Part shown: positions 19,061-34,311 of the stretch, piece after piece
Position numbering within the stretch: position 1 is the first letter of the stretch
Layout of the letters: every line of letters begins with the position of its first letter
Assembly: GCA_023475265.1 (NCBI GenBank)
Contig: JAMCWE010000133.1
Location: 1 to 55,412 of the forward strand
Reading direction: 5' to 3'
From: Bacteroidota bacterium
Lineage (GTDB): Bacteria > Bacteroidota > Ignavibacteria > Ignavibacteriales > Ignavibacteriaceae
Length of the DNA: 55,412 bases
Notes under the pieces: model-generated
What the model saw: only the letters and a program-made list of their open reading frames with translations
Databases searched by the model: none
Told to the model about the DNA's origin: nothing
Program-made: the position numbers and the translations under genes

Positions 19061-19333
19061 TTTGCATTTACACAAGGAAACAAACACCCCGATTTAAGAA
19101 ACACTCATCAATATTTAAGAAATTCTGCCCCTCATTTATGAAAAACCCATCCGCAAAGATGGAACTCCCTTCCGTAATGTTGAAACACTCACCCGCAAGT
19201 ATGAAACTTTCTACTGTAAGCAAGAACAACCTTACTGCGTACTTGAAATTCTCAACTGTAAAAAGGAAATAACCTACTGTATAGTTGTTACTCTTTACTG
19301 CAAAATAGAAACTTCCAACTGTAAAAAGTTGTT
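19061..19333. repeat. array of thirteen exact 21-bp degenerate tandem units
   Basis: Starting at 19061 the plus strand divides into 13 consecutive 21-mers with no indel (starts 19061, 19082, 19103 and so on to 19313). Unit position 17 is G in 12 of 13; units usually end GAAAC or GAAAT; from the fifth unit on, the middle reads CCGCAA, CTGTAA or CTGCAA. Individual units are otherwise strongly diverged. A minus-strand reading frame is open through the whole array and would encode 7-residue repeats, but a start signal and homology are lacking. Flanked exactly by the HepT remnant and the transposase remnant. Confidence 0.85.
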
Positions 19334-19441
19334 CAAGAAGCATTGGAGGGAGAAGTAACCAAGTTCTTAGGTAGGGACTGGTACGAAAGACAAGGAGAAA
19401 AGGAAGAATTTGAAAACCAAATATTTCAAAGAGTTAAATAA
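19331..19441 (+). pseudogene. IS256/Mutator-type transposase, N-terminal remnant
   Basis: 37 codons read VQEALEGEVTKFLGRDWYER, then QGEKEEFENQIFQRVK and a stop. The EVTxFLGRxxYER block followed by a degraded EG-YRNG-like segment is the conserved beginning of many IS256-family transposases. The remaining 350-odd residues and terminal inverted repeats are missing. It abuts the last unit of the 21-bp repeat array. Confidence 0.55.
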
Positions 19442-19886
19442 AAACTAATTAACGGCACAACAATAATTGTCAACATTGTTAAAACTTGAAGACAATTTAT
19501 TAAACTGTTTTATATTTTTTTATTTACTTCAATGAATAAATTTATTATGTTATAATTTAGATGGCCAAAAAATATTATTAGAAAAAAATATAAGTGTTGA
19601 ATAAAAGCATATTCACTGAGTAAAATAAATATTATTGGCAGCTGAAAAATTCAGGGTGGGCAATTCAAACTCAGGGACAAGAAATTATTAATAAGAAAAT
19701 TTAAAGTAGTCATAACTATATGATTTCAAGTGAATTTTTTATTAACAGCAAGTTAAACACAAAGAATTTTGAATAATGAATAAAGATGAATTATTTAATC
19801 ACTTTAAAAAGTTCATAGCAAATTGGGATAATTAAATGTAATAATACCGGGATCTATTATATAAAAACAAAACGAGGAGTCGAATT
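19442..19886. other. AT-rich intergenic stretch without recognised gene
   Basis: About 445 bp between the transposase remnant and the first OmpA gene. I see no conserved RNA or gene. A 19-codon open frame at 19776-19835 has no recognised homologue. The promoter and leader of the OmpA gene must lie here; a GAGGAG ribosome binding site is visible just before 19887. Confidence 0.35.
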
Positions 19887-21164
19887 ATGAAAAAACTAAT
19901 CTTTGTTTATTCCTTAATACTTGCGTTTGGTTTTATCCAAACTTCACAAGCACAATTTTTTGAGAAGCTGAAAAAAAAGACTGAGGAGAAAGTTAAAAAA
20001 GAAGGAGAAAAAAGAGTTGAAGAGAAGGTCAACAAAGGTGTAGAAAAAGCTTATGACGAAGCTGAAAAGCAATTAACTGGAAGCAGTGATAAGAAGAAAG
20101 AAGACTCCACCAAATCGAAAGACAGCCAGAAGAATCTTCAAACGATTAAAGAAACAGAAAACAACCCGCAAGTTGTAATTAATTCTAAATATGATTTTAT
20201 TCCTGGAGAGAAAGTTATCTTCTTCGATGATTTTACATCAGAGAATATAGGAGACTTTCCAATTCAATGGAACACAACAGGTTCCGGTGAAGTAGTAACG
20301 ACAAATCTTTTTCCTGGGAGATGGTTTCATATAACAAACGGAAGAGGAGTAACAACTCTTGATGCACCTGTAACATTACCTGAAAATTATACCATAGAGT
20401 TTGATGTAGTACCGCAAAAGGATCCGAAAAATAACGGAGGCACTACATATAACTTTTATTTAATCAGCACAATTAAACCAAAGGATTTGATATACGGATT
20501 GGCAAGACCTGGAGGCACCGGTATTAAATTCGAATTTGGCTATAATAATTATTACAGCGCTTACTATTCAGATGGAACTCCAGACCAAAGAGGAAGCGTT
20601 GGCGAGAATAGATTGCTAGCAGATAAAAAATATAGAATTTCGATATGGGTACAAAAACAAAGAATCCGTCTGTATAAAGACCAAGAAAAATTATTTGATC
20701 TTCCGAGAGTAGTACCGAAGACCGTAAAATATAATATGGTTCGTTTTGACGGCGGTATCCCGATGATAGGCAATTTCCGCGTAGCAACAGGTTTGCCGGA
20801 TATGCGCAGCAAGCTTCTTACAGAAGGTAAGCTAATCAGCTATGGAATTTATTTCGATGTAAATAAGGATGTTGTAAAGCCGGAATCATATCCTTCGATA
20901 AAAGAAATTGCAGCTATACTAAATGATAATCCAAACGTAAATATTAAAATTGTCGGGCATACAGATTCGGACGGCGATAATAACTCGAACCTTGATTTAT
21001 CAAAGCGCCGTGCAGCTTCAGTTAAGAACGCTTTAGTTAAAGATTTTAATGTAGATGCATCACGAATTGAATTTGATGGAAAAGGTGAAAGTGAACCTGT
21101 TTCGCCTAATGACAGCATTACAAACAAGGCTCTCAACCGCAGGGTAGAGTTTATAAAATTATAG
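19887..21164 (+). CDS. OmpA-family protein with N-terminal charged coiled coil
   Basis: 425 residues. Signal peptide (residues 1-22, ending SQA), then a very Lys/Glu-rich segment of about 55 residues (FEKLKKKTEEKVKKEGEKRV and on) likely to form a coiled coil. Residues about 95-295 form a beta-sandwich-like region with VIFFDDFTSENIGDFPIQWN, as in LamG-like/DUF1080 domains. The C-terminal 110 residues are an OmpA peptidoglycan-binding domain: IKIVGHTDSDGDNNSNLDLS, RRAASVKNAL and NRRVEFIKL. Outer-membrane or periplasmic, anchored to the cell wall. A GAGGAG site precedes the ATG. A second OmpA gene follows after 97 bp. Confidence 0.88.
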   Translation: MKKLIFVYSLILAFGFIQTSQAQFFEKLKKKTEEKVKKEGEKRVEEKVNKGVEKAYDEAEKQLTGSSDKKKEDSTKSKDSQKNLQTIKETENNPQVVINSKYDFIPGEKVIFFDDFTSENIGDFPIQWNTTGSGEVVTTNLFPGRWFHITNGRGVTTLDAPVTLPENYTIEFDVVPQKDPKNNGGTTYNFYLISTIKPKDLIYGLARPGGTGIKFEFGYNNYYSAYYSDGTPDQRGSVGENRLLADKKYRISIWVQKQRIRLYKDQEKLFDLPRVVPKTVKYNMVRFDGGIPMIGNFRVATGLPDMRSKLLTEGKLISYGIYFDVNKDVVKPESYPSIKEIAAILNDNPNVNIKIVGHTDSDGDNNSNLDLSKRRAASVKNALVKDFNVDASRIEFDGKGESEPVSPNDSITNKALNRRVEFIKL

Positions 21165-21261
21165 AATAGTTAAATAGAATATTTTAAATAAAAAATATTG
21201 GAACAAAAAGTTACATCGTTCTTTTTAACCAACTAATATTCAAAACAAATGGAGTGCACCA

Positions 21262-22107
21262 ATGAAAAAAACTATTCTCACTTTAGCTTTATTATTATTA
21301 ATGTCTTATGCAGCATTGGCTCAAACAGACGCTGAAGGATGCAAAGATGATTCCTTATTTACAAGGTTCCCCAATTTCTATATTTCCGAATGCTCTGAAA
21401 ATTATAACGAACTTAAACTTCGCATGAGCAGTGAAAAATCGGAAGTTAAAGAAGGGAACCTCAAATCTATTGTATACTACTTCAATTCCGAATCGGGTGA
21501 AAAAGAAAAAAGTCCTTTGCAAATTATGAAGAATTACGAAAATGCAGTTGTGAAGAACGGCGGTAAAATGGTATACAGAAATACCGATGCTTTGGGTGAT
21601 GAATTGGAAGCTACATTTCATCTTACTGCAAAAGATAAAGAATACTGGGTTAAGATTGGCAGCTTTGGCGGCACGGCTAATGAGGTTGAACATTATACAT
21701 TATATATTTTGGAAATGGAAGCAATGAAACAGGAAATTCAGGCGAGCGAGATGATGAATGCTTTGAATAAGGATGGTTTCATTGCGCTGTATATTAATTT
21801 TGAAACTGGTAAATCTGATATTAAACCTGAGTCTCAGGAGATTGTAAATCAAATTGCAGTGATGTTAAAACAAAACATCGACTTAAAAATAAGCATCGAA
21901 GGGCATACAGATAATGTTGGAAGCGATAAATCAAATCAAACACTCTCAGAAAACAGAGCCACGTCTGTAATGAAGGCGTTAATTGCACTGGGCATTGATA
22001 AGACACGACTTACTTCAAAAGGATGGGGCGCATCAAAGCCAATTGCTGACAATAGAACTGAAGAGGGTAAAGCGAAAAATCGAAGAGTTGAAATTGTAAA
22101 GCTTTAA
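21262..22107 (+). CDS. OmpA-family periplasmic/outer-membrane protein
   Basis: 281 residues. Signal peptide MKKTILTLALLLLMSYAALA; a middle domain of about 140 residues that starts DAEGCKDDSLFTRFPNFYIS and has no assigned function but recurs in OmpA proteins of this kind; and a C-terminal OmpA domain with LKISIEGHTDNVGSDKSNQT, LSENRATSVMKALIALGI and KNRRVEIVKL. It probably binds peptidoglycan through its C-terminus. Shine-Dalgarno GGAG precedes the ATG. Likely co-transcribed with the OmpA gene upstream. Confidence 0.9.
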   Translation: MKKTILTLALLLLMSYAALAQTDAEGCKDDSLFTRFPNFYISECSENYNELKLRMSSEKSEVKEGNLKSIVYYFNSESGEKEKSPLQIMKNYENAVVKNGGKMVYRNTDALGDELEATFHLTAKDKEYWVKIGSFGGTANEVEHYTLYILEMEAMKQEIQASEMMNALNKDGFIALYINFETGKSDIKPESQEIVNQIAVMLKQNIDLKISIEGHTDNVGSDKSNQTLSENRATSVMKALIALGIDKTRLTSKGWGASKPIADNRTEEGKAKNRRVEIVKL

Positions 22108-22186
22108 AATCGTACATTGTTATTAGATTCAATCCCAAAAGAGATGTTTCTTTTAAGAATAGAACACAATGAAACTTAATTAAGCT

Positions 22187-22585
22187 GACTTCTACAGATT
22201 ATAAAGTTGTAACTTCTAAAAAAATATTTAGAGATTGTTAATTTCAAAAAGCATTTTCTTTCTTAGGAATTGCTAATTCTAAATAAGTAATTACATTATA
22301 TTTCTTTCTAAATGTGATATTCAATTTAGAAAAGGAATTTCCTTTCTTGCAAGTATGGATTTCCAAGAAACAAAATGCATTTCCTTTCTTATAAGATTAG
22401 ATAACTAAGAAACAAAAGGCAGTTTCTATCTTATACTACGCAATATTTTTTCCATAATTTGCATTTTGTTTCCAAGAAAACGCATTCCATTTCCAAAATA
22501 ATGCATTTTCTTTCTTAATAAATGCGAAATTTAATTTGAGAAATGCGATTTCTGTCGAAAATAAGCGTTTTTATTAAGAGATAAG
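22187..22585. repeat. array of nineteen exact 21-bp degenerate tandem units
   Basis: Nineteen consecutive 21-mers, starting at 22187 and ending at 22585, with no indel. The approximate consensus is TGCATTTNCT followed by TTCTTAATAAA. Clear examples begin at 22250, 22376, 22460, 22481, 22502, 22523, 22544. Divergence is high but the T-rich centre and A-rich end keep phase. All frames contain stops in part of the array, so it is not coding. Its sequence is unrelated to the array at 19061. Confidence 0.87.
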
Positions 22586-23047
22586 ATCAGCAAAATAATA
22601 CATAAACAGAAGATTGACAGGGAAGAGTCTGTTTTTCAGATTAAAAATGTATGCAGCAGGCTTAAGAAAAAGAAATGAAATTGAGATTAAATAATGGATT
22701 TTATCATGACAGATTTATCGATAAAAAACCCGTCTAGTTTTTTAGAGAAGGGTAGCTGTTTAACATTGTGATTAATTAAGTATATAAATTATTGCACTAC
22801 AATATTTTAAATATTTTATGTATTTAATTAATAATAACATTTCTAAAAAATAATAATCGCACAAATAATCGAATAATCTGTAAACCTTCTAAAGAAAATT
22901 ATTTTCTTTTTTTTGAGTTGTTCATTTACATGATCCAAATTATTGTGAGAACTCGAATAAACGGGAAAGGCATTAATGAATTGAAATGTATTCGAGATTC
23001 TGAGCAAATAAGATTGTGTTGATTTATCATTAAAATGAGAACAACAG
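22586..23047. other. intergenic stretch without recognised gene
   Basis: About 460 bp of AT-rich sequence between the 21-bp array and the kinase remnant. It contains a weak hairpin-like sequence around 22728-22753 (ACCCGTCTA with AGAGAAGGGT), which uses the same GAGAAGGG word as the inverted repeat at 1900-1944. A minus-strand open frame here overlaps the kinase remnant and has no family resemblance. Confidence 0.3.
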
Positions 23048-23365
23048 ATGATCGAAGAGATAGTCACACGATATATGATCAAAGAGAAATTAGGCAACAG
23101 GGGAATGGACGAAATATACAAAAATGAAAATCTCAAACTACCCATAATGATTGCACAGAAATTCATACCATCAGAATTACTCTGCGACGAAAAAGCAAAG
23201 ACAAGATTTATCTACGAAGCACAAGCCGCATCTTCTTTTCAACACAATAAAATTTGTTCGATACATGATATAGAGGAAACAGAAGATGGAAAGTTTTTCA
23301 TGACAGAAAATTGCATCAGTATACGTTCAAGCAATGCGAAAGCAAATCTTCTGTACGATATTTAA
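23048..23365 (+). pseudogene. Ser/Thr protein kinase, N-lobe remnant
   Basis: 105 codons match the N-lobe of bacterial Hanks-type kinases that usually start MIGxTISHYKIxEKLGxGGMG: here IEEIVTRYMIKEKLGNRGMD, then EIYKNENLKLPIMIAQKFIP, SELLCDEKAKTRFIYEAQAA and ICSIHDIEETEDGKFFMTEN. The glycine loop is damaged (GNRGMDE in place of GxGGMGxV); the ATP-binding lysine (here MIAQKF, expected VALKF) survives. It stops before the catalytic loop HRD and DFG. A dead fragment, 28 bp upstream of the hybrid kinase gene. Confidence 0.8.
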
Positions 23366-23392
23366 TTTAAATAATGCGTTGGGAAATTTGAT

Positions 23393-25774
23393 ATGATAAA
23401 TAATAAAATAAAATTTGAAGTAAAAAGAGACAGCACAATAAAAAAAGAAGTTTCCAATAGACTTTTTGTCCCGGTGATTAATGCAGTAAAAGAAAAAGGA
23501 TTATCATTTAAAGATTTTTTAATCGGAACTCCTTACGATGAATCATATTTCTTAAATAAGCGGGAACGAGTTGAATGGTGGGTTTACTGTAAAATTCTTT
23601 CTAATATGAGATCCCATTTTTCCCTAAAAGATTTTGAAAACATTGGAGCTGATTTTGTTAGAAGCGGAATGATGGTTATAGGATTGATAGGATTTTTTCT
23701 TTTAAGCTCAAAGAAAATTTCTAAGTTGTTTGCCGATAAGATACTTCAAAGAATTACTTCTCATGTCTTAGGTCTTCAGATGATGCAAATAGAATTGATT
23801 GGTTCCAAAAAAATTATATTTACACTTTTAGTCGGAGAAGAATATGAGCACATGCCTGAATTTGCTTACGGGAATAAAGGATGTATCAAAGAGCTTGGTA
23901 TTCAATCAGGGTTAAAAGATTGCAAAGTAGACTTACAATTAATTCCTAAAGGTGCTATCTATGAGATGACATGGAAAAAAGAAAGCATCTTCTTTAGATT
24001 TAAAAGAGGATTCCGTTGGCTGTTTAGCATTAATAAAGCGTTTTGGGAATTAACTGATTCAAATGAAGAATTATTAAAGGAATATGAAAAATTAGAGGAT
24101 TATAAGAATAACCTCGAAATAAAGGTAGAAGAAAGAACTGCAGAACTAAAGAAAGCGCATGGCCAATTATCAGAAACAATTGATCTGCTTCAAGAGGCGC
24201 GGGAGATACAAAGCCGTTTTTTTACAAACATATCTCATGAATTTAGAACTCCTCTTACGTTAATACTTGGGCCGGTTAAGCAGATTATTGAAACGACTGA
24301 AGATGAAAAAATTATAGACGAATTAAAAGTTGTTCAAAGAAATGCTAAGAGGCTTTTAGCATTGGTAAACCAACTGCTTGATATATCTAAACTGGAATCA
24401 GGCAGCATGAAACTCCAGGCTAGCTCACAAAACATTGTGCCAATAATAAAAACACTATTGCAATCATTCTGTTCCTACGCAGATCGAAAAAAGATAAATT
24501 TGAAATTCAATTCATTCGAAGATGGAATTATCATATTCTTTGATAAAGATAAAATTGAAAAAATAATCACTAACATTCTTTCTAATGCTTTCAAGTTTAC
24601 ACCAGATGGCGGTAATATTGAAATTACCTTAACAAAAGATGAACAATATGTAAATGTAATAATTAGTGATACAGGGATTGGAATTCCGGAAGAAAAGATA
24701 CCGAAGATATTTGATCGCTTCTACCAGGCTGACGGCAGCCGTACAAAAGAGACAGAAGGTACCGGGATAGGGCTTTCATTGACAAAGGAATTAGTAGAAT
24801 TGCACAAAGGTAAGATTGAGGTACAAAGTAAGGAAGGTAAAGGCACAACCTTTATGATAAGCATTCCTTTAGGGAAAGAACATTTAAAGGATGAAGAAAT
24901 TTTCGAGACATCTGTAAATTTAGGAGAAAGTCATTTAATTCCGGATGAGATGTTTATTCAAGAAAAAATTAATACGGACTTTACTGAATACTTAATTAAT
25001 GATAAATGCGCAAAACCCCTTCTATTAATTATAGAAGACAACTTCGACGTTAGAAGTTACATTAAAGAAAATTTGATTATAGATTACAAAATTCTTGAAG
25101 CAGCAGACGGTTTAGCAGGCTGGAATAAATCTATTGAACAAATACCAGATTTGATTATAAGTGATATAATGATGCCAAAGATGGATGGATTTATGCTGTG
25201 TAATAAACTTAAATCGGACGAAAGGACAAGTCATATTCCAATTATTCTATTAACTGCTAAGGCTACAATTGAGGATAAGATAACATGCCTTAGAACCGGA
25301 GCAGATGATTATATAATGAAACCTTTCGATACCGAAGAATTAAAAGCAAGGATAAAAAATCTAATTGATCAAAGAGAAAGAATCCATGAACATTTCAGGA
25401 AGAATGGATTATTTGAGATTGACGAAGTAAATATTACACCTGTCGACCATAGATTTTTACAAAGAACCATAACAAATATAAATGAGCATATTTCCGATTC
25501 TTCATTCAGCGTAGAAAAACTTGCAGATAATATGGCGGTAAGCAGATCATTGCTTCTTAAAAAAATTGAGGCACTGATCGGTGAGCCGCCGATTGAATTA
25601 ATCAAAAGCACAAGAATGAACAAAGCTGCTAAACTAATAGAAAGTAAATTTGGAAATATTTCTGAGATTGCTCCTGAGGTAGGTTTTAATAATCCATCAT
25701 ATTTCGCCGAATGCTTTAAAAAACAATTTGGTGTTACTCCAACACAATATCAACACGATTCCAGTGATCAATAA
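23393..25774 (+). CDS. hybrid histidine kinase / response regulator / AraC protein
   Basis: 793 residues carrying a full two-component pathway in one protein. Residues 1-205: no clear transmembrane sensor; an unassigned domain with VPVINAVKEKGLSFKDFLIG at the start. About 210-265: coiled coil. HisKA at about 270-335 with the phosphorylated His in FFTNISHEFRTPLTLIL; HATPase at about 385-500 (ISDTGIGIPEEKIPKIFDRF, EGTGIGLSL). Receiver domain at about 540-655 with IIEDNFD, the phospho-Asp of LIISDIMMPKMDGF and the Lys of DDYIMKPFD. AraC-type HTH at about 690-790 (FNNPSYFAECFKKQFGVTPT). It would phosphorylate itself and act directly at DNA. Target genes unknown. Confidence 0.93.
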   Translation: MINNKIKFEVKRDSTIKKEVSNRLFVPVINAVKEKGLSFKDFLIGTPYDESYFLNKRERVEWWVYCKILSNMRSHFSLKDFENIGADFVRSGMMVIGLIGFFLLSSKKISKLFADKILQRITSHVLGLQMMQIELIGSKKIIFTLLVGEEYEHMPEFAYGNKGCIKELGIQSGLKDCKVDLQLIPKGAIYEMTWKKESIFFRFKRGFRWLFSINKAFWELTDSNEELLKEYEKLEDYKNNLEIKVEERTAELKKAHGQLSETIDLLQEAREIQSRFFTNISHEFRTPLTLILGPVKQIIETTEDEKIIDELKVVQRNAKRLLALVNQLLDISKLESGSMKLQASSQNIVPIIKTLLQSFCSYADRKKINLKFNSFEDGIIIFFDKDKIEKIITNILSNAFKFTPDGGNIEITLTKDEQYVNVIISDTGIGIPEEKIPKIFDRFYQADGSRTKETEGTGIGLSLTKELVELHKGKIEVQSKEGKGTTFMISIPLGKEHLKDEEIFETSVNLGESHLIPDEMFIQEKINTDFTEYLINDKCAKPLLLIIEDNFDVRSYIKENLIIDYKILEAADGLAGWNKSIEQIPDLIISDIMMPKMDGFMLCNKLKSDERTSHIPIILLTAKATIEDKITCLRTGADDYIMKPFDTEELKARIKNLIDQRERIHEHFRKNGLFEIDEVNITPVDHRFLQRTITNINEHISDSSFSVEKLADNMAVSRSLLLKKIEALIGEPPIELIKSTRMNKAAKLIESKFGNISEIAPEVGFNNPSYFAECFKKQFGVTPTQYQHDSSDQ

Positions 25775-26044
25775 CTCGTGACTTCTTTTACATTTAGTGA
25801 AAAAAATACTTGCAATCCCCATTATCCCTTCAATTTTAAATCATATATTCAAAATCGATATTTATTTCCGCAAATCTGGTAGAAAAACCTTCTCCCAGAT
25901 ATTATCATTAGATGGTAATTAAATAAACTTTCCAGAACTCTATACCCTGTATTAATCTATTTAACCGCAAGACGGAATCTCGCCTTTAACAGGTAGCGAG
26001 TTTTGTGAAAGTTTTTAACAAATTAAAAAACCGGAGGATACTTT

Positions 26045-26635
26045 ATGAAAACACTAAAATTTTTAGTTGTTTTATCTGCTTTTACGGGGTTTTTCCTAAT
26101 AGGTTGTTCTGAAAAATCACAATTGCCTGTATCACCTGGAGACCAATCTATAGATCAACCAGTCACAATGGAAAAAAACTTACCCAGAGAATTTACCGGG
26201 AAAATGACGCTAACGGGAAGTGATCCTAGCGCGGGTTTTATGAAAGAACCTGACGGTAAATTAATTTTAAGGGGTTTGAAGCAGACAATCCAATTCGATG
26301 TAATATTTAAGGATGGTGGCGCTGATCTACTTAGTGGGTCTGGAGATCTTGAACTAAACTGTAATGTGGACTTTGCTGCTGGCGTAGGCGAATGGTGGGG
26401 AAAGCTGATACTCACTCCAACATCAGATGAGGCAAAAGGCGGACAATGGATTATGACATGGCACGGAAAAGGTATTCTTGGTTCAGATGGATGGACGCTC
26501 CCTTTGAAAGAAGTAGGGCATGGGAATGGGGGAGCATTAACAGGATTACAGTGCTTCATGGATAATAATATCATTGCCCCAGCAGATATGTCAACTTGGT
26601 TAGGTACAGAAAGCGGATACATTAAAACACATTGA
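26045..26635 (+). CDS. lipoprotein of unknown function
   Basis: 196 residues. Leader MKTLKFLVVLSAFTGFFLIG ends at the lipobox IGCS with Cys21. The mature part is mostly beta-rich with many Gly and Trp (GVGEWWGKLILTPTSDEAKG, WIMTWHGKGILG), recalling extracellular domains such as those of lipoproteins with allene oxide cyclase/DUF3224-like barrels, but I cannot assign a family. A GGAGG site precedes the ATG and a strong hairpin follows the stop codon, so it is a stand-alone transcript. It precedes the T9SS-tail genes. Confidence 0.7.
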   Translation: MKTLKFLVVLSAFTGFFLIGCSEKSQLPVSPGDQSIDQPVTMEKNLPREFTGKMTLTGSDPSAGFMKEPDGKLILRGLKQTIQFDVIFKDGGADLLSGSGDLELNCNVDFAAGVGEWWGKLILTPTSDEAKGGQWIMTWHGKGILGSDGWTLPLKEVGHGNGGALTGLQCFMDNNIIAPADMSTWLGTESGYIKTH

Positions 26636-26648
26636 AGCATGCTTAGAA

Positions 26649-26685: not shown

Positions 26686-26730
26686 AAAATAAACTTCACT
26701 AATAAAATAGAAGATTAAAAGAATTGATAT

Positions 26731-27114
26731 ATGATTTCTTTTATGAATTTAAATATTGTAAATACGAATAATTTAGTTCCGACAGAGTTCTATTTGGGTC
26801 AAAATTACCCTAATCCATTTAGTAATTATACTTCTATAAAATTTTGTATTGCTTACAAAACCAAAGTTAAATTGGAAATTTTGGATGCTGATGGAAATAT
26901 TATTAAAACACTTTTAGATGAGATTAAAGAAGCTGGTACCTATGAGTTAAAGATTGATGCCTCAGTTTTCCTTTCCTTCAGCAGGAAGAAGACTGCTGAT
27001 GAGCAAGAAGTAAATGAAGAAACTTTTTTATACAGACTAAAAGCCACGCCCATTGGCGGGCAAGCAGGCAGTTATGAATGTGAAAAGAGAATGAGATTAT
27101 TAAAATTAATTTAA
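26731..27114 (+). CDS. orphan T9SS type A sorting-domain protein
   Basis: 127 residues, nearly all of it a type IX secretion C-terminal sorting domain: VPTEFYLGQNYPNPFSNYTS, VKLEILDADGNIIKTLLDE, AGTYELKIDAS and the final KRMRLLKLI. There is no signal peptide and no cargo domain, which the system normally needs. The strand that usually reads SSGVYFYRL is interrupted by a charged insert (SRKKTADEQEVNEETFLYRL) and a PIGGQAG segment. No Shine-Dalgarno is seen. It may be the tail of a lost secreted protein, i.e. a pseudogene. Confidence 0.6.
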   Translation: MISFMNLNIVNTNNLVPTEFYLGQNYPNPFSNYTSIKFCIAYKTKVKLEILDADGNIIKTLLDEIKEAGTYELKIDASVFLSFSRKKTADEQEVNEETFLYRLKATPIGGQAGSYECEKRMRLLKLI

Positions 27115-27126
27115 TAGAGGCCTATA

Positions 27127-28863
27127 ATGAAAATGTTTTGCTTTTGGATATGCTGTTTAATAATTGTTTCCTTTGTATTCTATGACAGCCATGCACAAAG
27201 CGGTGCGTGGACAAAGAAAGCTGATACACCTAAAGGGAGTGGCTCTACAAGTGAAGTTAATGGAAAAAATTATGTTATAGGAGGATCAAGATTATCGGAA
27301 ATTTATGATACTTTATTCCACACTGATATTGCTGCCGGTAATGTAAGCGGGATGTGGACTGCGGCAAAATCGCCTTACTACATTAATGGAGAAATAACTA
27401 TCCCAAACGATTCAACGCTTACGATAGAACCTGGAGTGGAAGTTATATTTAAAGGACATTATATATTTTATGTTAAGGGTAGGCTTCTTGCCTTTGGGAC
27501 AAATGCAGATACTATAAGATTTACTGCAGCAGATAAACAAACGGGGTGGCACGGGATAAGATTTTTAAATACACCAAAAACAAACGATACCTCCAAGTTT
27601 GTTTATTGTTCATTCAAATATGGGAAAGCTAATACAGGTGAGTACTCTAGTGGTTATAGAAGAGGCGGTGCAATTCTTATTCAGGAATTTGATAAAGTTT
27701 TAATTTCTAACTCATTGTTTCAATTTAATATGAATGATGGGGATATTTCTCCTACAGGTGGTGCTGCTATTTATGTTACTAATGCTAATCCGATAATAAA
27801 AAATAGCACTTTTATTAATAATACCGGCACTACTGATGGCGCCATAATATGCTGGTATTCAAATGCTGTCATATCAAATAATATCTTTTCAAACAATAGT
27901 AGCCCGCATGGTCCAGTTTCTTGCTGTTTTGGCTCCGTTACCGTATCAGGAAATATTATTGCTAATAATGTAACCAATAGAGCCGGTGGCGGAGTTTTTT
28001 GTATGACTTCTCATACTATAATCACAAATAATATCATAACCTTTAATCGATCCTTCGGCAGGGAAGGAGAAGGCGGTGGTATTAAATGTTGGCTTAATGA
28101 CAAATCAATTATTATAAACAACACAATTGCCTATAACAGTGCAGCACATGGCGGCGGGGTTTGCTGTAATAACAATTCCAATCCAATTTTCTTTAATAAT
28201 ATTATTTGGGGCAATACTTCCTCAGATGGTCCTCAGGTTAGTTTATCGGATACTCAGTCAGATCCACATTTTCTATATAATGACATCCAGGGACGCAAGG
28301 ACGCATTTGGTGGCAATGGAGCTGGATCTAAGTATTCAGGAGTATATGAAAATAATATTGACCTAAATCCTTTATTTAAAGATACTGCATCTGGAAATTA
28401 TAGCCTTTCCTCTCCTTCACATTGTATAGGTGCCGGTTGGGATTCTGTAGAAGTCAATGAAGCCTGGTACACAACACCAAAATTTTGCATTGGGGGAAAT
28501 CCTCGTCCAAGCCCCTCAGGAACAAGACCCGATATTGGTGCATGTGAAAGTCTTTTAGGAAGTCCAGTTACAGGTGTTATACAACAACTGACGAAACAAA
28601 TAGAATTTACTCTTTACCAGAACTACCCTAATCCATTTAATCCAACAACTACTCTGTCATTTGTCATTGGTCATTCATCATTTGTTACACTGATAGTTTA
28701 TGACATACTTGGAAGAGAAGTAGCAACTCTCGTCAATGAAGAGAAACGAGCAGGCACTTATGAAGCAACCTGGAATGCAGAAGGATTATCAAGCGGTGTT
28801 TATTTCTATCAATTAAAAACAGGTAATTATGTTGAGACAAAAAAAATGATTTTACTGCGTTAA
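27127..28863 (+). CDS. secreted right-handed beta-helix protein with T9SS tail
   Basis: 578 residues. Signal peptide ending near residue 23 (DSHAQ). Residues 25-55 are a single kelch-like motif (SGAWTKKADTPKGSGSTSEV, then NGKNYVIGG). From about 80 to 470 there is a parallel beta-helix region with repeated ISNNIFSNNSS, ITNNIITFNRS, IINNTIAYNSAAHGGGVCC type coils. The C-terminal 85 residues are a T9SS type A sorting domain (YQNYPNPFNPTTTL, VYDILGREVATLVN, SSGVYFYQL). Probably cell-surface or secreted, with a carbohydrate-related role likely but unproven. It is followed by a second T9SS cargo gene. Confidence 0.87.
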   Translation: MKMFCFWICCLIIVSFVFYDSHAQSGAWTKKADTPKGSGSTSEVNGKNYVIGGSRLSEIYDTLFHTDIAAGNVSGMWTAAKSPYYINGEITIPNDSTLTIEPGVEVIFKGHYIFYVKGRLLAFGTNADTIRFTAADKQTGWHGIRFLNTPKTNDTSKFVYCSFKYGKANTGEYSSGYRRGGAILIQEFDKVLISNSLFQFNMNDGDISPTGGAAIYVTNANPIIKNSTFINNTGTTDGAIICWYSNAVISNNIFSNNSSPHGPVSCCFGSVTVSGNIIANNVTNRAGGGVFCMTSHTIITNNIITFNRSFGREGEGGGIKCWLNDKSIIINNTIAYNSAAHGGGVCCNNNSNPIFFNNIIWGNTSSDGPQVSLSDTQSDPHFLYNDIQGRKDAFGGNGAGSKYSGVYENNIDLNPLFKDTASGNYSLSSPSHCIGAGWDSVEVNEAWYTTPKFCIGGNPRPSPSGTRPDIGACESLLGSPVTGVIQQLTKQIEFTLYQNYPNPFNPTTTLSFVIGHSSFVTLIVYDILGREVATLVNEEKRAGTYEATWNAEGLSSGVYFYQLKTGNYVETKKMILLR

Positions 28864-28957
28864 GAAAAGAAAATAAATAAATGTAAAGAGATGAAATCTT
28901 CTCCTATGCACACCTCTGACGAGAAAGATGTCATCTTAAACAAAGGAGGTAAATAAA

Positions 28958-31120
28958 ATGAAAAAATTATACTTGTTATTTTTTATGCTTTTGTTAATAA
29001 CAAAAGTTTATCCCCAGGAAGGATGGTTTGTACAAAGTCCACTACCTTGCAAGGAGTCCTTAAACGATGTCTACTTTGTAAATGCAAATACCGGAACTGC
29101 GGTTGGTTTTGGACCAATAATAAGGACTACAGATGGAGGAAATAATTGGATTAAGCAGTCAAGTGGATTAACCTATGGTTATCTTACTGGTGTTCACTTC
29201 ATTGACGCAAATAATGGTTGGATTGTTGGTACTGCCGGAACGATTCTTAAGACAACAGATGGCGGAAATAACTGGGAGAGGAAATATTACGCCAACAGCG
29301 ATGATGATTATCTTGCAGATGTTTACTTTACTGATGAAAATAATGGAACGGTTGTAGGTAATGGTTGGATCGGAGGCAATTACAGTGGTAAAATTCTTAA
29401 AACTACTGACGGCGGAAACAGTTGGAGCAGTCAGTTATTAGACCCATCATTACGGTTTAGTGGGGTTTACTTTACAGATGTAAATAACGGAACAACTGTT
29501 GGATATATTCAAAATAGTACAAATACAGAAGGAGTAATACTAAGAACAAAAGATGGAGGGAAAAGTTGGATTAAGCAATCGAGTGGAACAAGCAGCTATC
29601 TTAATGGAGTCTGCTTTACAGATACAAATATTGGAACAGTTGTTGGTGATCTAGGATTAATACTGAGAACAACGGATGGAGGAGAAAATTGGACAAAGCA
29701 ATACACCGATTCTACTAATTGGCTTCGAGGGGTCTGTTTTACTGATGCAAATAACGGGACAGTTGTTGGCAATGGGATAATCTTAAGAACGACGGATGGA
29801 GGAAATAAATGGATTGAGCAATCTAGTGGAACCACAAGCTGGTTTAGTGCTGTTTCCTTTACAGATGCTAACAATGGAACTGCTGTTGGTGGAATATGCA
29901 GTCCAGCAACAATTTTAAGAACCACCGATGGAGGAAACACGTGGGTTAGCCAGGTTAAAGGAACAACAAATCGCCTTCAGCGGATTACCTTTGTTGATTC
30001 AAACAATGGAACGGCTGTTGGCTACGATGGAACAATTATCAATACAACCGACGGTGGAAATAACTGGGTCATTCAATCGAGTGGAACAACAAGCGAACTT
30101 TTTGATGTTTGCTTTACAGACAAAAATACAGGAACTGTGGTTGGTTGGGATATTTATGGAAATTCAAGTACAGTACTCAGGACAACAGATGGCGGAAAAC
30201 ACTGGATTAAAACGTTAATCATTTTGGACTCAGTTGAGCCAAGGGGTGTTTGCTTTATCAATTCTGACGTAGGATTTGTTACCGGTTTTCAAAACAGTTT
30301 GGGAAAGATATTCAAAACAACTGATGGCGGAAACCACTGGATAACTAAATATAGTGGTTCTGGTTATGGTACAGTTTCCTTTCTTGATTCGAATACAGGA
30401 ATAGTTATGGGTTACGACGGAACAATTCTTAGGACAACAGATGGCGGAGAAACCTGGGTAAGTAAGTCAGTCGGGGCAACATATCTTTCTGATGTCTTTT
30501 TTATAGATGCAGATAATATAACAGCCGTTGGTGATAATGGAAAAATTTTAAGAACGACTGACGGTGGAAACAAGTGGATTAGCCAACCAAGCGGAACGCT
30601 AAACCATCTGTATGATGTTCATTTTACAGATACATTTAATGGAACTGCTGTCGGTGATAATGGAACAATTTTAAGAACTAGTGATGGTGGTAATCACTGG
30701 ACTCATCAATCAAATGGGCAAACGTGGCCACCTTTATGTGGGGTCTGGTTCACAGATGCTAATACAGGCTGGGCATGCGGCTGGGACGGTATAATTCTAC
30801 ACACCACAAATGGCGGGATTACATTTATAGAAGAAGAAACGTTAGATAAAATCCCGAATGATTTTTTGCTTTATCAGAATTATCCAAATCCATTTAATCC
30901 AACAACAACTCTATCATTTGTAATTGGTCATTCATCATTTGTTACTCTAAAAGTGTACGATATACTTGGTAGAGAAGTAGCAACATTAGTAAACGACGAA
31001 AAGCCGGCAGGCACTTATGAAGTAACCTGGAATGCAAAAGGATTATCGAGCGGTGTTTATTTCTATCAATTAAATGCAGGTAAATTTTTATCGACAAAGA
31101 AAATGTTGATTATTAAGTAA
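28958..31120 (+). CDS. secreted YCF48/BNR-like repeat protein with T9SS tail
   Basis: 720 residues. Signal peptide 1-19 (MKKLYLLFFMLLLITKVYP). Then 14 repeats of about 45 residues, each ending in a TTDGGxxW or similar Asp-box (RTTDGGNNWIKQ, KTTDGGNSW, RTTDGGENW and others) and containing FTDANNGTAVG; these form a YCF48/sialidase-like beta propeller arrangement. The T9SS sorting domain starts at about residue 630 (YQNYPNPFNPTTTL to KKMLIIK). A strong GGAGG site precedes the ATG. The DNA of its last 250 bp is nearly identical in type to the tail of the gene upstream. Confidence 0.9.
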   Translation: MKKLYLLFFMLLLITKVYPQEGWFVQSPLPCKESLNDVYFVNANTGTAVGFGPIIRTTDGGNNWIKQSSGLTYGYLTGVHFIDANNGWIVGTAGTILKTTDGGNNWERKYYANSDDDYLADVYFTDENNGTVVGNGWIGGNYSGKILKTTDGGNSWSSQLLDPSLRFSGVYFTDVNNGTTVGYIQNSTNTEGVILRTKDGGKSWIKQSSGTSSYLNGVCFTDTNIGTVVGDLGLILRTTDGGENWTKQYTDSTNWLRGVCFTDANNGTVVGNGIILRTTDGGNKWIEQSSGTTSWFSAVSFTDANNGTAVGGICSPATILRTTDGGNTWVSQVKGTTNRLQRITFVDSNNGTAVGYDGTIINTTDGGNNWVIQSSGTTSELFDVCFTDKNTGTVVGWDIYGNSSTVLRTTDGGKHWIKTLIILDSVEPRGVCFINSDVGFVTGFQNSLGKIFKTTDGGNHWITKYSGSGYGTVSFLDSNTGIVMGYDGTILRTTDGGETWVSKSVGATYLSDVFFIDADNITAVGDNGKILRTTDGGNKWISQPSGTLNHLYDVHFTDTFNGTAVGDNGTILRTSDGGNHWTHQSNGQTWPPLCGVWFTDANTGWACGWDGIILHTTNGGITFIEEETLDKIPNDFLLYQNYPNPFNPTTTLSFVIGHSSFVTLKVYDILGREVATLVNDEKPAGTYEVTWNAKGLSSGVYFYQLNAGKFLSTKKMLIIK

Positions 31121-31147
31121 ATGGAAAGGAAGTGAACATATACATAA

Positions 31148-31181
31148 TTATTAGCTCACGGATTAATCCATGAGCTAATAA
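31148..31181. terminator. hairpin between convergent genes
   Basis: TTATTAGCTCA (31148-31158) pairs with TGAGCTAATAA (31171-31181), and the loop contains a short GGATTAATCC palindrome. It lies between the ends of the YCF48-like gene (plus) and the TonB-type receptor gene (minus). Suitable for termination on both strands. Confidence 0.65.
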
Positions 31182-31204
31182 AATAAGATTACGAAATTAA
31201 ATAA

Positions 31205-33637
31205 TTATGAATCTTCACCGCCATTATCACTTTCCATTTCATCACCGTTTTGTTTTTCCTCTTCATTTTTATAATTGTTGAAGTTAAATCTTAGATTAAG
31301 CAAAATCATCGGCGCTTCATTGGAGTGGTAATTGTAGGAATAAAATCCAACACCGGTAGAAGTAGATTCATGTCTTCTTGTTCTAAATATATCTCTTATC
31401 TGCAGAGTTAAAGATAATTTCTTTTCAATGAATTCTTTTTTAACTGAAAGATCGGCTGAGAACATTGCTGATTCTCTCTCTTGAGCAGCAACTTCCTGGC
31501 TATGATATCTAAAGTTTAATTGAGCTTGAAGAGACTCGGTAATTTTAAAAGAGTTATTAAATCTTGCAGACCAATTGAAATTTGTTCTTGAGAAAGCTTC
31601 GTTATTTATAACTCCATCAATTTTATAATCATAAATATTACCCATCAAATTTACATTCCAGAAATTAAACGGATCACTAACTATCATGAACTCGGAACCA
31701 AGCGAATAATCTGTTCCAACATTTTCAAAAGAATTAAGAGTTACATTTTCAGAATAAACTGATTGAACTTCATCAATTACATTATGATTTACGCGATAAT
31801 AAAAATCATTTGACACCGATACTTGTCCAAGCATTGTCTGAAATCCAAATTCGTATGAGTCAATCAGTTCAGGCTTGAGAGAAGGATTTCCCTTTCTAAT
31901 ATTATTTGCATCTTCCCAAGTATAAAATGGTTCAAGAAACCAATTATGCGGCCTATCTATCCTTCGTGTGTAACTTACCATTAATTGCGAACCAATTCCG
32001 AATTTATAAGAAGTATGGAAAGACGGGAAGATGTCCCACTGATCAAGAGAAAAATTTTGATTGTTTCCTAAAAGCTCAATTGTGCGGAATGTATATTCAG
32101 ATCTTATTCCACCTTGAATTCCCAGATTGCCAATTTCATCGGCGTAGATAGAATAAAGAGAAAGCTGACTTACATTAGATTTTGTATTCTGACTAAACAG
32201 AGATTGAAATTCATAATTGCCGTTTGCCGGATTGAAATTATAAAGACCATTTGATTCATCAGAAAGTTCGATTTCTCCTTGAGACCCTGCTTCAAAACGA
32301 TTGGTCTTTCCTAATGGAAGTGTATAATCAATCTTTCCTCTAAACTCAGTAGACGGACCGGCTTCGGTAGTTTTCTTACCATCAAATTGAATGTTGTTAT
32401 TTATTTCAGATGATGATGAAGATTCATCTGAATTACGATGGCTGGCAAAAAATTCACCGGATATTTCATGATCTTTAAGAGAAAACTTATGAGTATAATT
32501 TGTATTAACAGCATAATACCATCCGGAGCGATTGCTGTTCTCTCTGCTAAGATAAAAAATATTTTGAGGATCTAATGTTGACCATTGAACATAGTTGAGA
32601 ACAGAATTATGTTCGCCGCTTCTCTTACCGAATCTTCCGCCAATATTTAATTTGTCATTTTTACTGAGATTAAAATCTAAGCCGCCTCTAATACCGAAAG
32701 AAATTCTTCCTCTTTCACTATCTCCGTTTGAGTTGATAAATGAAGAATTATTACCGGTATCAAATTGCCTGTTTTCTTTACTAGTGCCAGGTGAAAATCT
32801 CCGGTTGTAGTCCATTCCAAAATTATAGTTTACCGAAGAAGTACGGTACTCAAATAAAAAATCGCCGCCGTATTTATCATTAACACCGGCGTTAAGATTT
32901 GTTATTCCGCTTAATCCTAAGTCGGAGTTTGATTTCATTTTGATGTTGATAATACCGGCGTTTCCTTCAGCATCATACTTTGCAGAAGGATTAGTAATAA
33001 TTTCGATGGTCTCAATCGCACTTGCCGGAATTTGCTGAAGAGCATCTTGCGGATCCATAACAGAAGGGCGGTTATCAATCAAGACGGTAAAATTAGTGCT
33101 GCCGCGAAGGCTAACATTGCCATCAACATCAACATTTACAGAGGGAACATTTTCAAGAACATCAGCAACGTTACCGGAAATAGACGTCTGCATCTGGCTG
33201 ACATCTATAACTTTTTTATCGATCTGGTAAGTTACCGGCGATCTGGTTCCCTTAACATCAACACGCTCTAAATTTATGGCAGATGGTTTTATAAAAATAT
33301 TTCCAATTTCTGCTGACAGCTTTGAAGTAGTTATTGAAATATTTCTAATTCTTCTTCTTTCATAACCGATAAATTGAACATTGATAAAATATTTCCCGGA
33401 TGGAATATTGGTTAAAATAAATTTTCCCTCTTTATCGGTAACAGTGCCGGTAACTTGCGTGCTGTCTTTAGAATTAAAAAGAATAATGTTTGCGTATTCT
33501 ATCGGAGCTTTTGCACTTTCATCAAATATTTTACCGGAAATAACTCCGCCGGTTTTATTATCATGTCTTTCCTGACTAAAAACATCACCATCAGTAAAAA
33601 ATAAAGTTAGAACTACAAAGGCAATCTTTTTCAACAT
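31205..33637 (-). CDS. TonB-dependent receptor-like outer-membrane beta-barrel protein
   Basis: 810 residues. After a signal peptide, residues about 30-115 form a CarboxypepD regulatory-like domain (GVISGKIFDESAKAPIEYAN, DSTQVTGTVTDKEGKF). The plug domain follows (VLENVPSVNVDVDGNVSLRG, then IPASAIETIEIITNPSAKYD and EGNAGIINI), and about 230-790 is a large beta-barrel of the outer-membrane beta-barrel type 3 group. The C-terminus carries an acidic tail (EEEKQNGDEMESDNGGEDS). No SusD-like partner is adjacent, so its ligand cannot be inferred. Monocistronic. Confidence 0.9.
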   Translation of the reverse strand: MLKKIAFVVLTLFFTDGDVFSQERHDNKTGGVISGKIFDESAKAPIEYANIILFNSKDSTQVTGTVTDKEGKFILTNIPSGKYFINVQFIGYERRRIRNISITTSKLSAEIGNIFIKPSAINLERVDVKGTRSPVTYQIDKKVIDVSQMQTSISGNVADVLENVPSVNVDVDGNVSLRGSTNFTVLIDNRPSVMDPQDALQQIPASAIETIEIITNPSAKYDAEGNAGIINIKMKSNSDLGLSGITNLNAGVNDKYGGDFLFEYRTSSVNYNFGMDYNRRFSPGTSKENRQFDTGNNSSFINSNGDSERGRISFGIRGGLDFNLSKNDKLNIGGRFGKRSGEHNSVLNYVQWSTLDPQNIFYLSRENSNRSGWYYAVNTNYTHKFSLKDHEISGEFFASHRNSDESSSSSEINNNIQFDGKKTTEAGPSTEFRGKIDYTLPLGKTNRFEAGSQGEIELSDESNGLYNFNPANGNYEFQSLFSQNTKSNVSQLSLYSIYADEIGNLGIQGGIRSEYTFRTIELLGNNQNFSLDQWDIFPSFHTSYKFGIGSQLMVSYTRRIDRPHNWFLEPFYTWEDANNIRKGNPSLKPELIDSYEFGFQTMLGQVSVSNDFYYRVNHNVIDEVQSVYSENVTLNSFENVGTDYSLGSEFMIVSDPFNFWNVNLMGNIYDYKIDGVINNEAFSRTNFNWSARFNNSFKITESLQAQLNFRYHSQEVAAQERESAMFSADLSVKKEFIEKKLSLTLQIRDIFRTRRHESTSTGVGFYSYNYHSNEAPMILLNLRFNFNNYKNEEEKQNGDEMESDNGGEDS

Positions 33638-33839
33638 AAGAACCCCTTTATAAAGATTAATAAAATGTTCAGATTAAATTCTAAACTTTAAACAAATAAA
33701 AATGAGTTTAAGTTTAAAATATTTCCAACATTGAGTATGAAAAATACGAAAAATATTTTTCTCTTTTTAGTCAGGCTACATTGGTATAAATACAAAATTT
33801 ATTTGCTAAAAAGACATTTCAGGAACTCTGTGAAGCATA

Positions 33840-33993
33840 AAGGCGCTGAAAGCGTCTGTATTCAAAATTGGGACAACATCCCAATATATAATATTCATAA
33901 CTTTTATTAATAACCCTGAAAGGGTGAAATAAATCTTTGCTTAACTTCAGTGAATAACTTATTTACTTGGTAGTCACGGTCTAAACCGTGACT
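33840..33993. repeat. cluster of four short palindromes (REP-like)
   Basis: Four compact palindromes follow one another: CGCTGAAAGCG (33844-33854), ATTGGGA-CAACA-TCCCAAT (33867-33885), ACCCTGAAAGGGT (33913-33925) and AGTCACGGT-CTAA-ACCGTGACT (33972-33993). A further partial copy with GTCACGG occurs at 34030-34037. The CCTGAAAGGG and GGGACAACATCCC words resemble repeat units I know from Bacteroidetes/Chlorobi intergenic regions; mobilisation by a RAYT-type transposase is inference. Confidence 0.65.
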
Positions 33994-34059
33994 GATTTTA
34001 CATGTTTTGGTATAATATGCTGGTATTTCAGTCACGGAATGGCTAATTAGAATCCCGTT

Positions 34060-34311
34060 ATAAATATCTTAAATAACCGGACAAGAAGTATGGATGTGGT
34101 AATTGAAATTTGAAATATGCGCGTGGAAAGGTTAAACATCCATATAAATATCTGAAATGCCGGCGAGGGAAGAATAACTACAGAAATAAATATCTGAAAT
34201 GCCCGAAATGAAAGAATAAATGTCCATATAAATAACTGAAATACGCGTATAAATAGAATAAATGTGGACATTTCAAATATAAATATGCGAATTTGAACAT
34301 AATTCAATGGA
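34060..34311. repeat. array of six 42-bp (2 x 21) degenerate tandem units
   Basis: Units start exactly every 42 bp at 34060, 34102, 34144, 34186, 34228 and 34270 (the last is weak). They begin ATAAATATCTGAAATGCC, with the second half AATGAAAGAATAAATGTCC. Within a unit the two halves resemble each other at 21-bp offset (TGAAATGCCCG against ATAAATGTCCA), so the basic period is again 21 bp. A minus-strand frame is open through the array and would give a 14-residue repeat (RAFQIFISVVILPS-like). The sequence is unrelated to the other two arrays. Confidence 0.82.

What the first reader, a model, noticed from the sequence alone, without database searches (positions are those of the whole stretch)
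19061..34311. Three unrelated intergenic arrays share an exact 21-bp period
The arrays at 19061-19333, 22187-22585 and 34060-34311 have different consensus sequences but the same 21-bp spacing (42 = 2 x 21 in the third) and no indels, despite heavy base divergence inside units. Neutral tandem repeats this diverged should have gained indels. 21 bp equals two turns of B-DNA, so each unit presents the same helix face. That fits phased DNA bending, a protein that coats DNA at two-turn intervals, or a copying process with a fixed 21-nt step. Coding cannot explain all three, because the second array has stops. This is the best candidate here for an undescribed element class.
Basis: partly seen in the sequence, partly recalled or inferred. 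Interest (0 to 1): 0.75.

Follow-up and report, generated by a model that had tools for sequence, protein, structure and literature searches.

The report
Helix-phased repeat arrays beside helical-protein genes
The three repeat arrays look like left-over copies of a little-noticed bacterial genetic unit, in which a string of 21-base repeats (two turns of the DNA helix) sits beside a gene for a small helical protein that may bind it; no description of such a unit was found.

Summary
The arrays at 19.1, 22.2 and 34.1 kb have 21/42-bp periods far above chance. In 1.2 Mb of the same genome, 20 of 22 non-coding periodic regions are 21-based (these three included). They are not isolated minisatellites. 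In related genomes such arrays lie beside genes of four small protein families without a Pfam or NCBIfam match above cut-off: 48 of 67 gene loci have one, against 4 of 95 control windows from gene-bearing genomes (1 of 95 with 21 as the fundamental period). The three window arrays match arrays beside such genes elsewhere in the genome: A1 next to an 'ETG' gene, A2 and A3 next to 'MTKY' genes; A3 still carries a broken gene remnant. Arrays beside the single-domain families (KPV, MTKY) are palindromic; those beside ETG and HB3 are not, so array symmetry tracks the linked protein. Two arrays average about 20.5 bp, which argues against coding and for helical phase. Evidence that selection removes indels is only moderate and depends on alignment settings. 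Best model: phased DNA-site arrays read by a cognate helical protein. Linkage is shown; binding is inferred and untested, and the acidic HB3 and MTKY proteins weaken it.

The parts
19075..19328 (.). Array A1: 12 units of 21 bp, ETG-type (core, read by eye, approx. GAAAnTCTCnACTGyAAA), not palindromic (z -0.2); no gene remnant found beside it
   Evidence: 80% identical over 127 bp to the array beside the ETG gene on contig C115 (E 7.8e-27); array-profile similarity z 9.7; tblastn
22204..22576 (.). Array A2: 18 units of 21 bp in 42-bp alternation, palindromic (z 3.9); orphan, MTKY-type
   Evidence: 80% identical over 99 bp to the array beside the MTKY gene on C26 (E 8.6e-17); profile z 7.1; no gene remnant by tblastn
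34027..34297 (.). Array A3: 13 units of 21 bp in 42-bp alternation, palindromic (z 2.2); MTKY-type
   Evidence: 34036-34423 is 86% identical (333/388) to C123:27942-28330 on the opposite strand; profile z 9.2; A3-like DNA also in same-genus genomes G554 and G049
34376..34537 (+). Decayed MTKY/Fn3 gene downstream of A3: a start region that soon hits a stop, then a piece in another frame that resembles the middle of the family protein
   Evidence: nucleotide homology to the L156 copy runs through the gene start; the frame 34412-34537 reads ...LQDDTDGVGLI..., compared by eye with ...LEDDTDGMGFI... in the full-length C267 protein; the tblastn did not report this piece
19325..19438 (+). Short ORF piece abutting A1 that resembles an IS256-type transposase N-terminus; likely a mobile-element remnant, not part of the unit
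   Evidence: reading of the translation, family name recalled; a Pfam scan of 36 aa of it gave no family

Best explanation
SHOWN: in the host's phylum (by the labels of named relatives, Bacteroidota including Ignavibacteria) there is a recurrent two-part chromosomal unit. One part is an array of about 10-24 units of 21 bp (rarely about 20.5). The other, usually 40-300 bp away, is a gene for a small protein of one of four families: KPV (about 126 aa), MTKY (about 204 aa with an Fn3-like tail), ETG (about 240 aa, internally duplicated) and HB3 (about 235 aa). The KPV and ETG models are all-helical; HB3 and MTKY were not modelled. The array is upstream of the gene in all 18 HB3, 9 KPV and 3 MTKY loci measured, and upstream in 5 and downstream in 5 of 10 ETG loci. 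The three window arrays are orphaned or decayed copies: A1 of ETG type, A2 and A3 of MTKY type. Unit symmetry differs by linked family. INFERRED: each array is a run of DNA sites for its own protein, held at two helical turns so that neighbouring molecules lie on one face of the duplex and cooperate. KPV and MTKY would bind as symmetric dimers on palindromic units, the larger ETG and HB3 on asymmetric units. The nucleoprotein array most likely autoregulates the adjacent promoter or organises the local chromosome. Orphan arrays arise by duplication and loss of the gene and may be extra sites or debris.
For: Linkage at z>=6: HB3 23 of 27 loci, two of them at about 20.5 bp; ETG 10 of 15 genes and 2 of 2 in IMG/VR contigs; KPV 11 of 19; MTKY 2 of 4 full-length, a third at 5.0 or 5.7. 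Together 48 of 67 (46 by the strict rule) against 4 of 95 windows of 3.6 kb from 11 gene-bearing genomes, of which 1 has 21 as fundamental; p 8e-21, strict 2e-19. Split: own genome 15 of 18 loci against 17 of 284 windows; other genomes 33 of 49 against 4 of 95. Further controls: 0 of 16 Fn3-only hits, 0 of 29 relatives' protease loci. Symmetry follows family: median palindrome z KPV 3.1, MTKY 3.35, ETG 0.15, HB3 0.1; p 1.4e-7. ETG is an internal duplication (hhalign E 1.3e-9). Protein identity and array similarity correlate: rho 0.22, p 6e-4 over 229 pairs; KPV alone 0.63. Columns conserved within an array change less between orthologues in the two gene-linked pairs (p 0.006; 0.011). Mean period 20.5 bp in two arrays.
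Against: No binding was tested. HB3 proteins are acidic (pI 5.0-6.9) and the two MTKY proteins measured 5.2-5.4; ETG is mixed; only KPV is mostly basic. No DNA-binding fold was recognised: Pfam shows only sub-threshold matches and Foldseek finds no match at E<=0.001 for either model. Indel avoidance is weak: with whole arrays, 6 indels for 181 substitutions in arrays against 24 for 227 in flanks (p 0.012), 5/194 against 17/230 with dearer gaps (p 0.046), 25/149 against 42/187 with cheap gaps (p 0.34); a first count with one array trimmed gave p 2e-5. The column test for L058/L221 also falls to p 0.12 at dearer gaps, and the orphan pair A3/L156 shows no column constraint (p 0.65-0.70). Six KPV loci of one genus (g73) have no array; two ETG loci of G307 and one of G481 have none of period 21; four HB3 loci have none (two contain stops); MTKY L268 has none. 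Many arrays of the own genome have no such gene nearby. The protein-array correlation could be shared ancestry; in ETG (p 0.12) and HB3 (p 0.06) alone it is not significant.
Confidence: 0.55

Rival explanations
1. The arrays act as RNA: a long leader (or 3' region) of the linked gene whose repeated hairpins bind the protein or control expression.
For: Usually upstream and close to the gene. Three of four KPV-linked arrays tested fold far better than shuffles (z -6.4, -3.5, -4.5) and A2 does too (-2.8).
Against: The three HB3 and two ETG arrays tested and A1, A3 do not (z -0.3, +3.2, -0.2, -1.3, 0.05, 0.8, -0.06), nor does KPV L223 (+0.9). Half of the ETG arrays are downstream of the gene. A period held at about two B-DNA turns, including about 20.5 bp, has no obvious reason in RNA.
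Confidence: 0.16
2. Neutral minisatellites: each array is a tandem amplification that decays by mutation, and the neighbouring genes merely sit in regions where repeats are tolerated or arise.
For: Array sequences differ from locus to locus; many arrays are orphans; paralogous copies exist; indel avoidance is not robust to alignment settings.
Against: Linkage to four families across the phylum (48 of 67 against 4 of 95); family-specific symmetry; one shared period where chance amplification would give many (20 of 22).
Confidence: 0.08
3. The arrays are recombination, attachment or mobility sites of a mobile cassette, and the helical protein serves insertion or spread.
For: Patchy distribution (HB3 12 of 247, ETG 10 of 395, KPV 7 of 197 genomes); different neighbours at the loci read; dispersed copies; two ETG units in contigs called viral.
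Against: No plasmid match for one KPV, one ETG and one HB3 protein and no phage match for the HB3 protein; no recombinase recognised by eye at the nine loci; L149/L220 and L058/L221 share flanking DNA in related genomes, so units can be stably inherited.
Confidence: 0.13
4. The arrays encode seven-residue repeat peptides.
For: 21 nt is seven codons; A1 and A3 have open frames.
Against: Open frames are 22 of 55 against 16.9 expected; A2 lies in no long open frame; 20- to 20.5-bp arrays break frame; symmetry is at the DNA level.
Confidence: 0.02

Closest known systems
ParB (omega) / parS of plasmid pSM19035 and similar small-protein centromere/operator arrays
   Same: A short site repeated contiguously in direct or inverted orientation and read by a small dimeric protein; at least four contiguous repeats are needed for function (passages of PMC9499535)
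   Different: There the repeat is 7 bp, the protein is ribbon-helix-helix and a ParA ATPase partners it, on a plasmid. Here the period is 21 (or about 20.5) bp, the modelled proteins are helical without a recognised DNA-binding fold, no ATPase partner was recognised at the loci read, the units are chromosomal and most have their own sequence
Plasmid replication iterons
   Same: Tandem sites near two helical turns apart beside the binder's gene (recalled)
   Different: No Rep protein recognised; many arrays per chromosome; no plasmid match for three of the families
BrickBuilt minisatellite/MITE of Porphyromonas gingivalis
   Same: Intergenic tandem arrays in many copies in a Bacteroidota genome (abstract of PMC4596501)
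   Different: One 23-nt sequence inside a MITE with inverted-repeat ends in P. gingivalis; no linked protein family mentioned in the abstract
TAACTGA heptamer repeats of Beggiatoaceae, Cyanobacteria and Bacteroidetes
   Same: Intergenic direct-repeat arrays upstream of genes, patchy across phyla including Bacteroidetes (abstract of PMC4679880)
   Different: One heptamer sequence, mostly short sets, no pattern in the downstream ORFs; here 21 bp, many sequences, recurrent gene families

Membership tests
ParABS / omega-type partition system | ParA-type (or ParM/TubZ) NTPase gene with the site-binding gene | tested here: inconclusive
   None recognised by eye among the ORFs around the nine loci listed; no family search of neighbours was made
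ParABS / omega-type partition system | RHH or HTH DNA-binding protein | tested here: not met
   No RHH or HTH match in Pfam for the members scanned of the four families (10 HB3, 12 plus 2 KPV, 2 MTKY, 1 ETG); KPV and ETG models all-helical without a PDB match at E<=0.001
ParABS / omega-type partition system | Several contiguous short sites read by the adjacent gene's protein | tested here: inconclusive
   Contiguous arrays beside the gene: met. Binding: not testable with these tools
Plasmid iterons | On a replicon beside rep and origin | tested here: not met
   tblastn of one KPV, one ETG and one HB3 protein in 72,556 plasmids: no match at E<=0.01; MTKY not searched
BrickBuilt-type MITE | 23-nt unit of constant sequence | tested here: not met
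   Period 21 or about 20.5; no constant unit sequence
BrickBuilt-type MITE | Terminal inverted repeats around the array | not tested
   No search for terminal inverted repeats was made
CRISPR array | Identical repeats with unique spacers, cas genes | tested here: not met
   Units diverged, 21 bp, no spacers; Rfam finds only two tRNAs in the window; no cas gene noticed by eye
Coding heptapeptide repeat | Frame kept open | tested here: not met
   22 of 55 open against 16.9 expected; 20.5-bp arrays
Neutral minisatellite | Indels accumulate with substitutions as in neighbouring DNA | tested here: inconclusive
   Whole arrays of three pairs: p 0.012, 0.046 and 0.34 under three alignment settings; the p 2e-5 came from trimming one array
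Neutral minisatellite | No fixed gene partner | tested here: not met
   48 of 67 gene loci against 4 of 95 control windows

The most novel reading that the evidence does not exclude
A new class of chromosomal DNA-organising or autoregulatory unit of Bacteroidota: several families of small, at least partly helical proteins without assigned function, each co-diverging with a private array of helix-phased sites, palindromic for single-domain proteins and asymmetric for the larger ones, with orphan arrays seeded through the genome. It would be a natural library of protein-array pairs using a so far unrecognised mode of DNA recognition.
Probability: 0.46. Interest if true: 0.88.

Novelty: categorically new. 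Interest (0 to 1): 0.76.

Why it matters
Four protein families with no assigned function gain a constant genomic partner, and a scattered repeat class gains a gene. If the proteins read the arrays, this is a DNA-recognition system found only by its spacing, with many ready-made protein-array pairs for testing how specificity and symmetry evolve. It also gives a simple way (scan for lag 21 beside small ORFs) to find more such families.

Tried and rejected
Coding heptapeptides, RNA hairpins as the general rule, A-tract bending as the general rule (GC-rich arrays), a fixed 21-nt copying step (about 20.5-bp arrays), neutral minisatellite (the indel test alone does not exclude it), plasmid or phage element (no match; no KPV relative in viral contigs; two ETG relatives in IMG/VR contigs, both with arrays). 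Orthologous position of A3: five close relatives (four of the genus, one of the family) carry the neighbouring protease gene but no 21-bp array within 1.5 kb, so A3 is lineage-specific there, though A3-like DNA occurs elsewhere in G554 and G049. Structure search gave only generic helical bundles. hhalign links KPV to ETG only weakly (probability 16%; 1.7-17.7%) and HB3 to neither; HB3 shows no internal duplication, so a common fold of the four families is not claimed. HB3 and MTKY proteins were not modelled. Rfam finds only two tRNAs in the window. In relatives, L108 and L110 looked periodic but are most likely coding repeats, and L143 11399-11742 has lag 63 without 21; all three were dropped. 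L063 and L184 are doubtful members of the 20 of 22. In one search the 55 arrays and their limits were chosen by hand from loci already found.
Full report
Observation. A lag scan of the window gives, outside coding repeats, exactly the three reported places: z 10.4 at 19.1 kb, 9.5 at 22.3 kb and 9.5 at 34.1 kb, at lag 42 with clear signal at lag 21. Simulated windows never exceeded 5.75 (30 simulations). The window is contig C58 of an unnamed 4.77-Mb, 270-contig assembly. A KPV protein of this genome is 94% identical to one in a MAG labelled Bacteroidetes, and the other named records with relatives are labelled Bacteroidetes, Ignavibacteria/Ignavibacteriales, Cytophagales, Chitinophagaceae or uncultured bacterium. 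'Bacteroidota' below rests on these labels.

In 1,196,309 bases of the same genome I found 22 non-coding periodic regions (z>5.5, lags 10-130); 20 are 21-based, the window's three included, and two of them show a one-base slip. Coding repeats in the same stretches have mixed periods (123, 126, 72, 102 and others). Two of the 20 are doubtful (L063, L184), and many stretches came from contigs listed as hits of A1 or A2, so a genome total of some 60-80 is only a rough extrapolation. In 743,492 bases of 19 relatives of the family I accept one clear non-coding 21-bp array (L140), after dropping L108, L110 and L143. The class is therefore patchy.

What lies beside the arrays. Reading the ORFs around each array showed small proteins of recurring kinds. 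I call them KPV (126 aa...LGGTRKSERKKPVRK), ETG (ETGHAKNV...), HB3 (about 235 aa...FYNEYxAARVIKDLG) and MTKY (with a C-terminal Fn3-like part). No member scanned has a match above a curated cut-off: Pfam for 10 HB3, 14 KPV, 2 MTKY and 1 ETG proteins, NCBIfam for 10 HB3 and single members of the others; PADLOC gave nothing for HB3. The four-helix-bundle protein beside L158, which does match TIGR02436, belongs to none of the four.

Linkage. Together 48 of 67, or 46 by the strict rule used for the controls. Control windows of 3.6 kb from 11 gene-bearing genomes (the loci themselves are 1.6-6.4 kb long): 4 of 95 by the strict rule, and only 1 with 21 as the fundamental period. Fisher p 8e-21, strict 2e-19. 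Split by genome: own 15 of 18 loci against 17 of 284 own windows; others 33 of 49 against 4 of 95. Stretches of the family gave 5 of 185 windows. Loci hit only through an Fn3 domain: 0 of 16. Relatives' protease loci: 0 of 29. Misses: six KPV loci of one genus (g73), L227 whose upstream side is off the contig, L231 with a sub-threshold array; ETG L203 and L214 of G307 (an AATAATCC repeat at L203), L211 (gene with two stops; another repeat) and two contig-end fragments; HB3 L278 and L280 (with stops), L282 and L293; MTKY L249 (below threshold) and L268.

Geometry. Over 55 arrays the median is 13.8 units, range 9.9-23.6. In the 40 gene-linked loci measured, the array is upstream of all 18 HB3, 9 KPV and 3 MTKY genes and on either side of ETG genes (5 up, 5 down), mostly 40-300 bp away. 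L276 and L285 read near 0.9 kb, L288 overlaps, and the gene readings of L276 and L228 are fragments, so their distances are unsure.

The three window arrays. A1 matches the C115 array beside the ETG gene (80% over 127 bp; profile z 9.7). A2 matches the C26 array beside an MTKY gene (80% over 99 bp; profile z 7.1). A3 is part of a 388-bp repeat, 86% identical to C123:27942-28330, and the homology runs into the start of an MTKY gene that is broken in both copies. tblastn finds no gene remnant at A1 or A2. So the window holds orphans of two protein types. A3-like DNA is also found in two other genomes of the genus.

Spacing. I first counted indels in three related pairs (L149/L220, L058/L221, A3/L156) with the L058 array cut short and got 1 indel for 157 substitutions in arrays against 29 for 251 in flanks, p 2e-5. 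Repeated with whole arrays the counts are 6/181 against 24/227 (p 0.012), 5/194 against 17/230 with dearer gaps (p 0.046) and 25/149 against 42/187 with cheap gaps (p 0.34). The core of each array is aligned almost without gaps and the degenerate end of L058/L221 is not. So avoidance of indels is suggested, not shown. Columns well conserved within the array change less between the two gene-linked orthologous pairs (p 0.006 and 0.011; the second varies from 0.001 to 0.12 with gap settings), and not in the orphan pair (p 0.65-0.70).

Helical phase rather than frame. Two HB3 arrays (L235, the same place as L271, in G095; L239, the same place as L274, in the own genome) have best lags 82/62/20 and 41/61/102, a mean near 20.5 bp, with single steps between conserved words of 18-22 bp. 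Fully open frames are not in clear excess (22 of 55 against 16.9).

Symmetry follows the protein. Against column-permuted nulls the unit consensus is palindromic for KPV (median z 3.1, n 9) and MTKY (3.35, n 4), but not for ETG (0.15, n 10) or HB3 (0.1, n 21); Mann-Whitney p 1.4e-7. In L223 and L233 (KPV) I read the 42-bp period as the same half-site in alternating orientation. ETG is an internal duplication of one domain (hhalign E 1.3e-9); KPV is single. The simplest reading is that a symmetric dimer of a one-domain protein needs a palindrome and the larger proteins do not. HB3 showed no duplication, so this explanation is tested only for ETG.

Array and protein sequence. Array similarity rises with protein identity within families (rho 0.22, p 6e-4 over 229 pairs; KPV alone 0.63, p 3e-4; ETG and HB3 alone not significant). 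Examples: HB3 L283/L290 at 92% and z 8.7; MTKY L250/L265 at 71% and z 7.9; three ETG loci L204/L207/L208 at 58-67% and z 5.3-6.1. Counter-examples: ETG L213/L218 at 69% and z 1.6; HB3 L279/L287 at 65% and z 1.9; KPV L196/L222 at 49% and z -0.8. Shared ancestry is not excluded.

Mechanism. Shown: the linked unit, the common period, the family-specific symmetry. Suggested: constraint on spacing and on motif columns. Inferred: that the linked protein is what reads the array, that reading is of DNA, and that the result is autoregulation or local chromosome organisation. The AlphaFold models are helical: KPV pLDDT 88, pTM 0.58, a 20-residue and a 54-residue helix; ETG pLDDT 79, pTM 0.68, from two sequences only, two similar helical halves. 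Neither matches a solved structure at E<=0.001. KPV proteins are mostly basic; HB3 and MTKY are acidic, ETG mixed, which counts against plain DNA binding and leaves room for another binder. RNA folding explains some KPV-type arrays and A2 but not the ETG and HB3 arrays tested, A1 or A3.

Known systems. Closest in working principle is the pSM19035 parS/ParB array of direct and inverted heptads (passages), but the RHH fold and plasmid setting are not met and no ATPase partner was recognised at the loci read. BrickBuilt (abstract) and TAACTGA repeats (abstract) are the nearest described repeats found and differ in period, uniform sequence and lack of a linked gene family in what I read. Searches for a prior description (listings; open-licence PMC only, no preprints) found none, so novelty is stated against that library only.

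Noticed in passing
L305 15992-16201 (G221): A GC-rich 21-bp array (88% identity at lag 21) with an inverted repeat in each unit and none of the four gene families beside it: an orphan array in a distant family of the phylum.
   Followed up: partly
L225, L226, L229, L230, L232, L199: KPV genes of one genus (g73) have no 21-bp array, and their C-terminal tails differ from the KPVRK tail of the array-linked ones: possible loss of array and change of tail together.
   Followed up: no
L203 1235-1335; L214 about 1790-2070: ETG-family genes of G307 have an octamer repeat (AATAATCC at L203) or another 8-bp-based repeat beside them instead of a 21-bp array.
   Followed up: partly
window 18930-19055: Piece upstream of A1 whose translation resembles a HepT-type C-terminus (recalled, not tested); with the transposase-like piece after A1 it suggests a decayed mobile region.
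   Followed up: no
window 28958-31120: YCF48/BNR repeat protein with 120- to 126-bp coding repeats and a secretion sorting tail: the main other periodic signal of the window, coding and ordinary.
   Followed up: yes
L158 3679-4026: A four-helix-bundle (23S rRNA intervening-sequence type) gene lies about 340 bp from an array with 20/21-bp units: possibly a further helical family with an array.
   Followed up: no
L223 240-552, L233 2673-2883: 42-bp arrays in which the half-site TTAGTTT alternates in orientation every 21 bp, in two different MAGs with KPV proteins 69% identical.
   Followed up: partly
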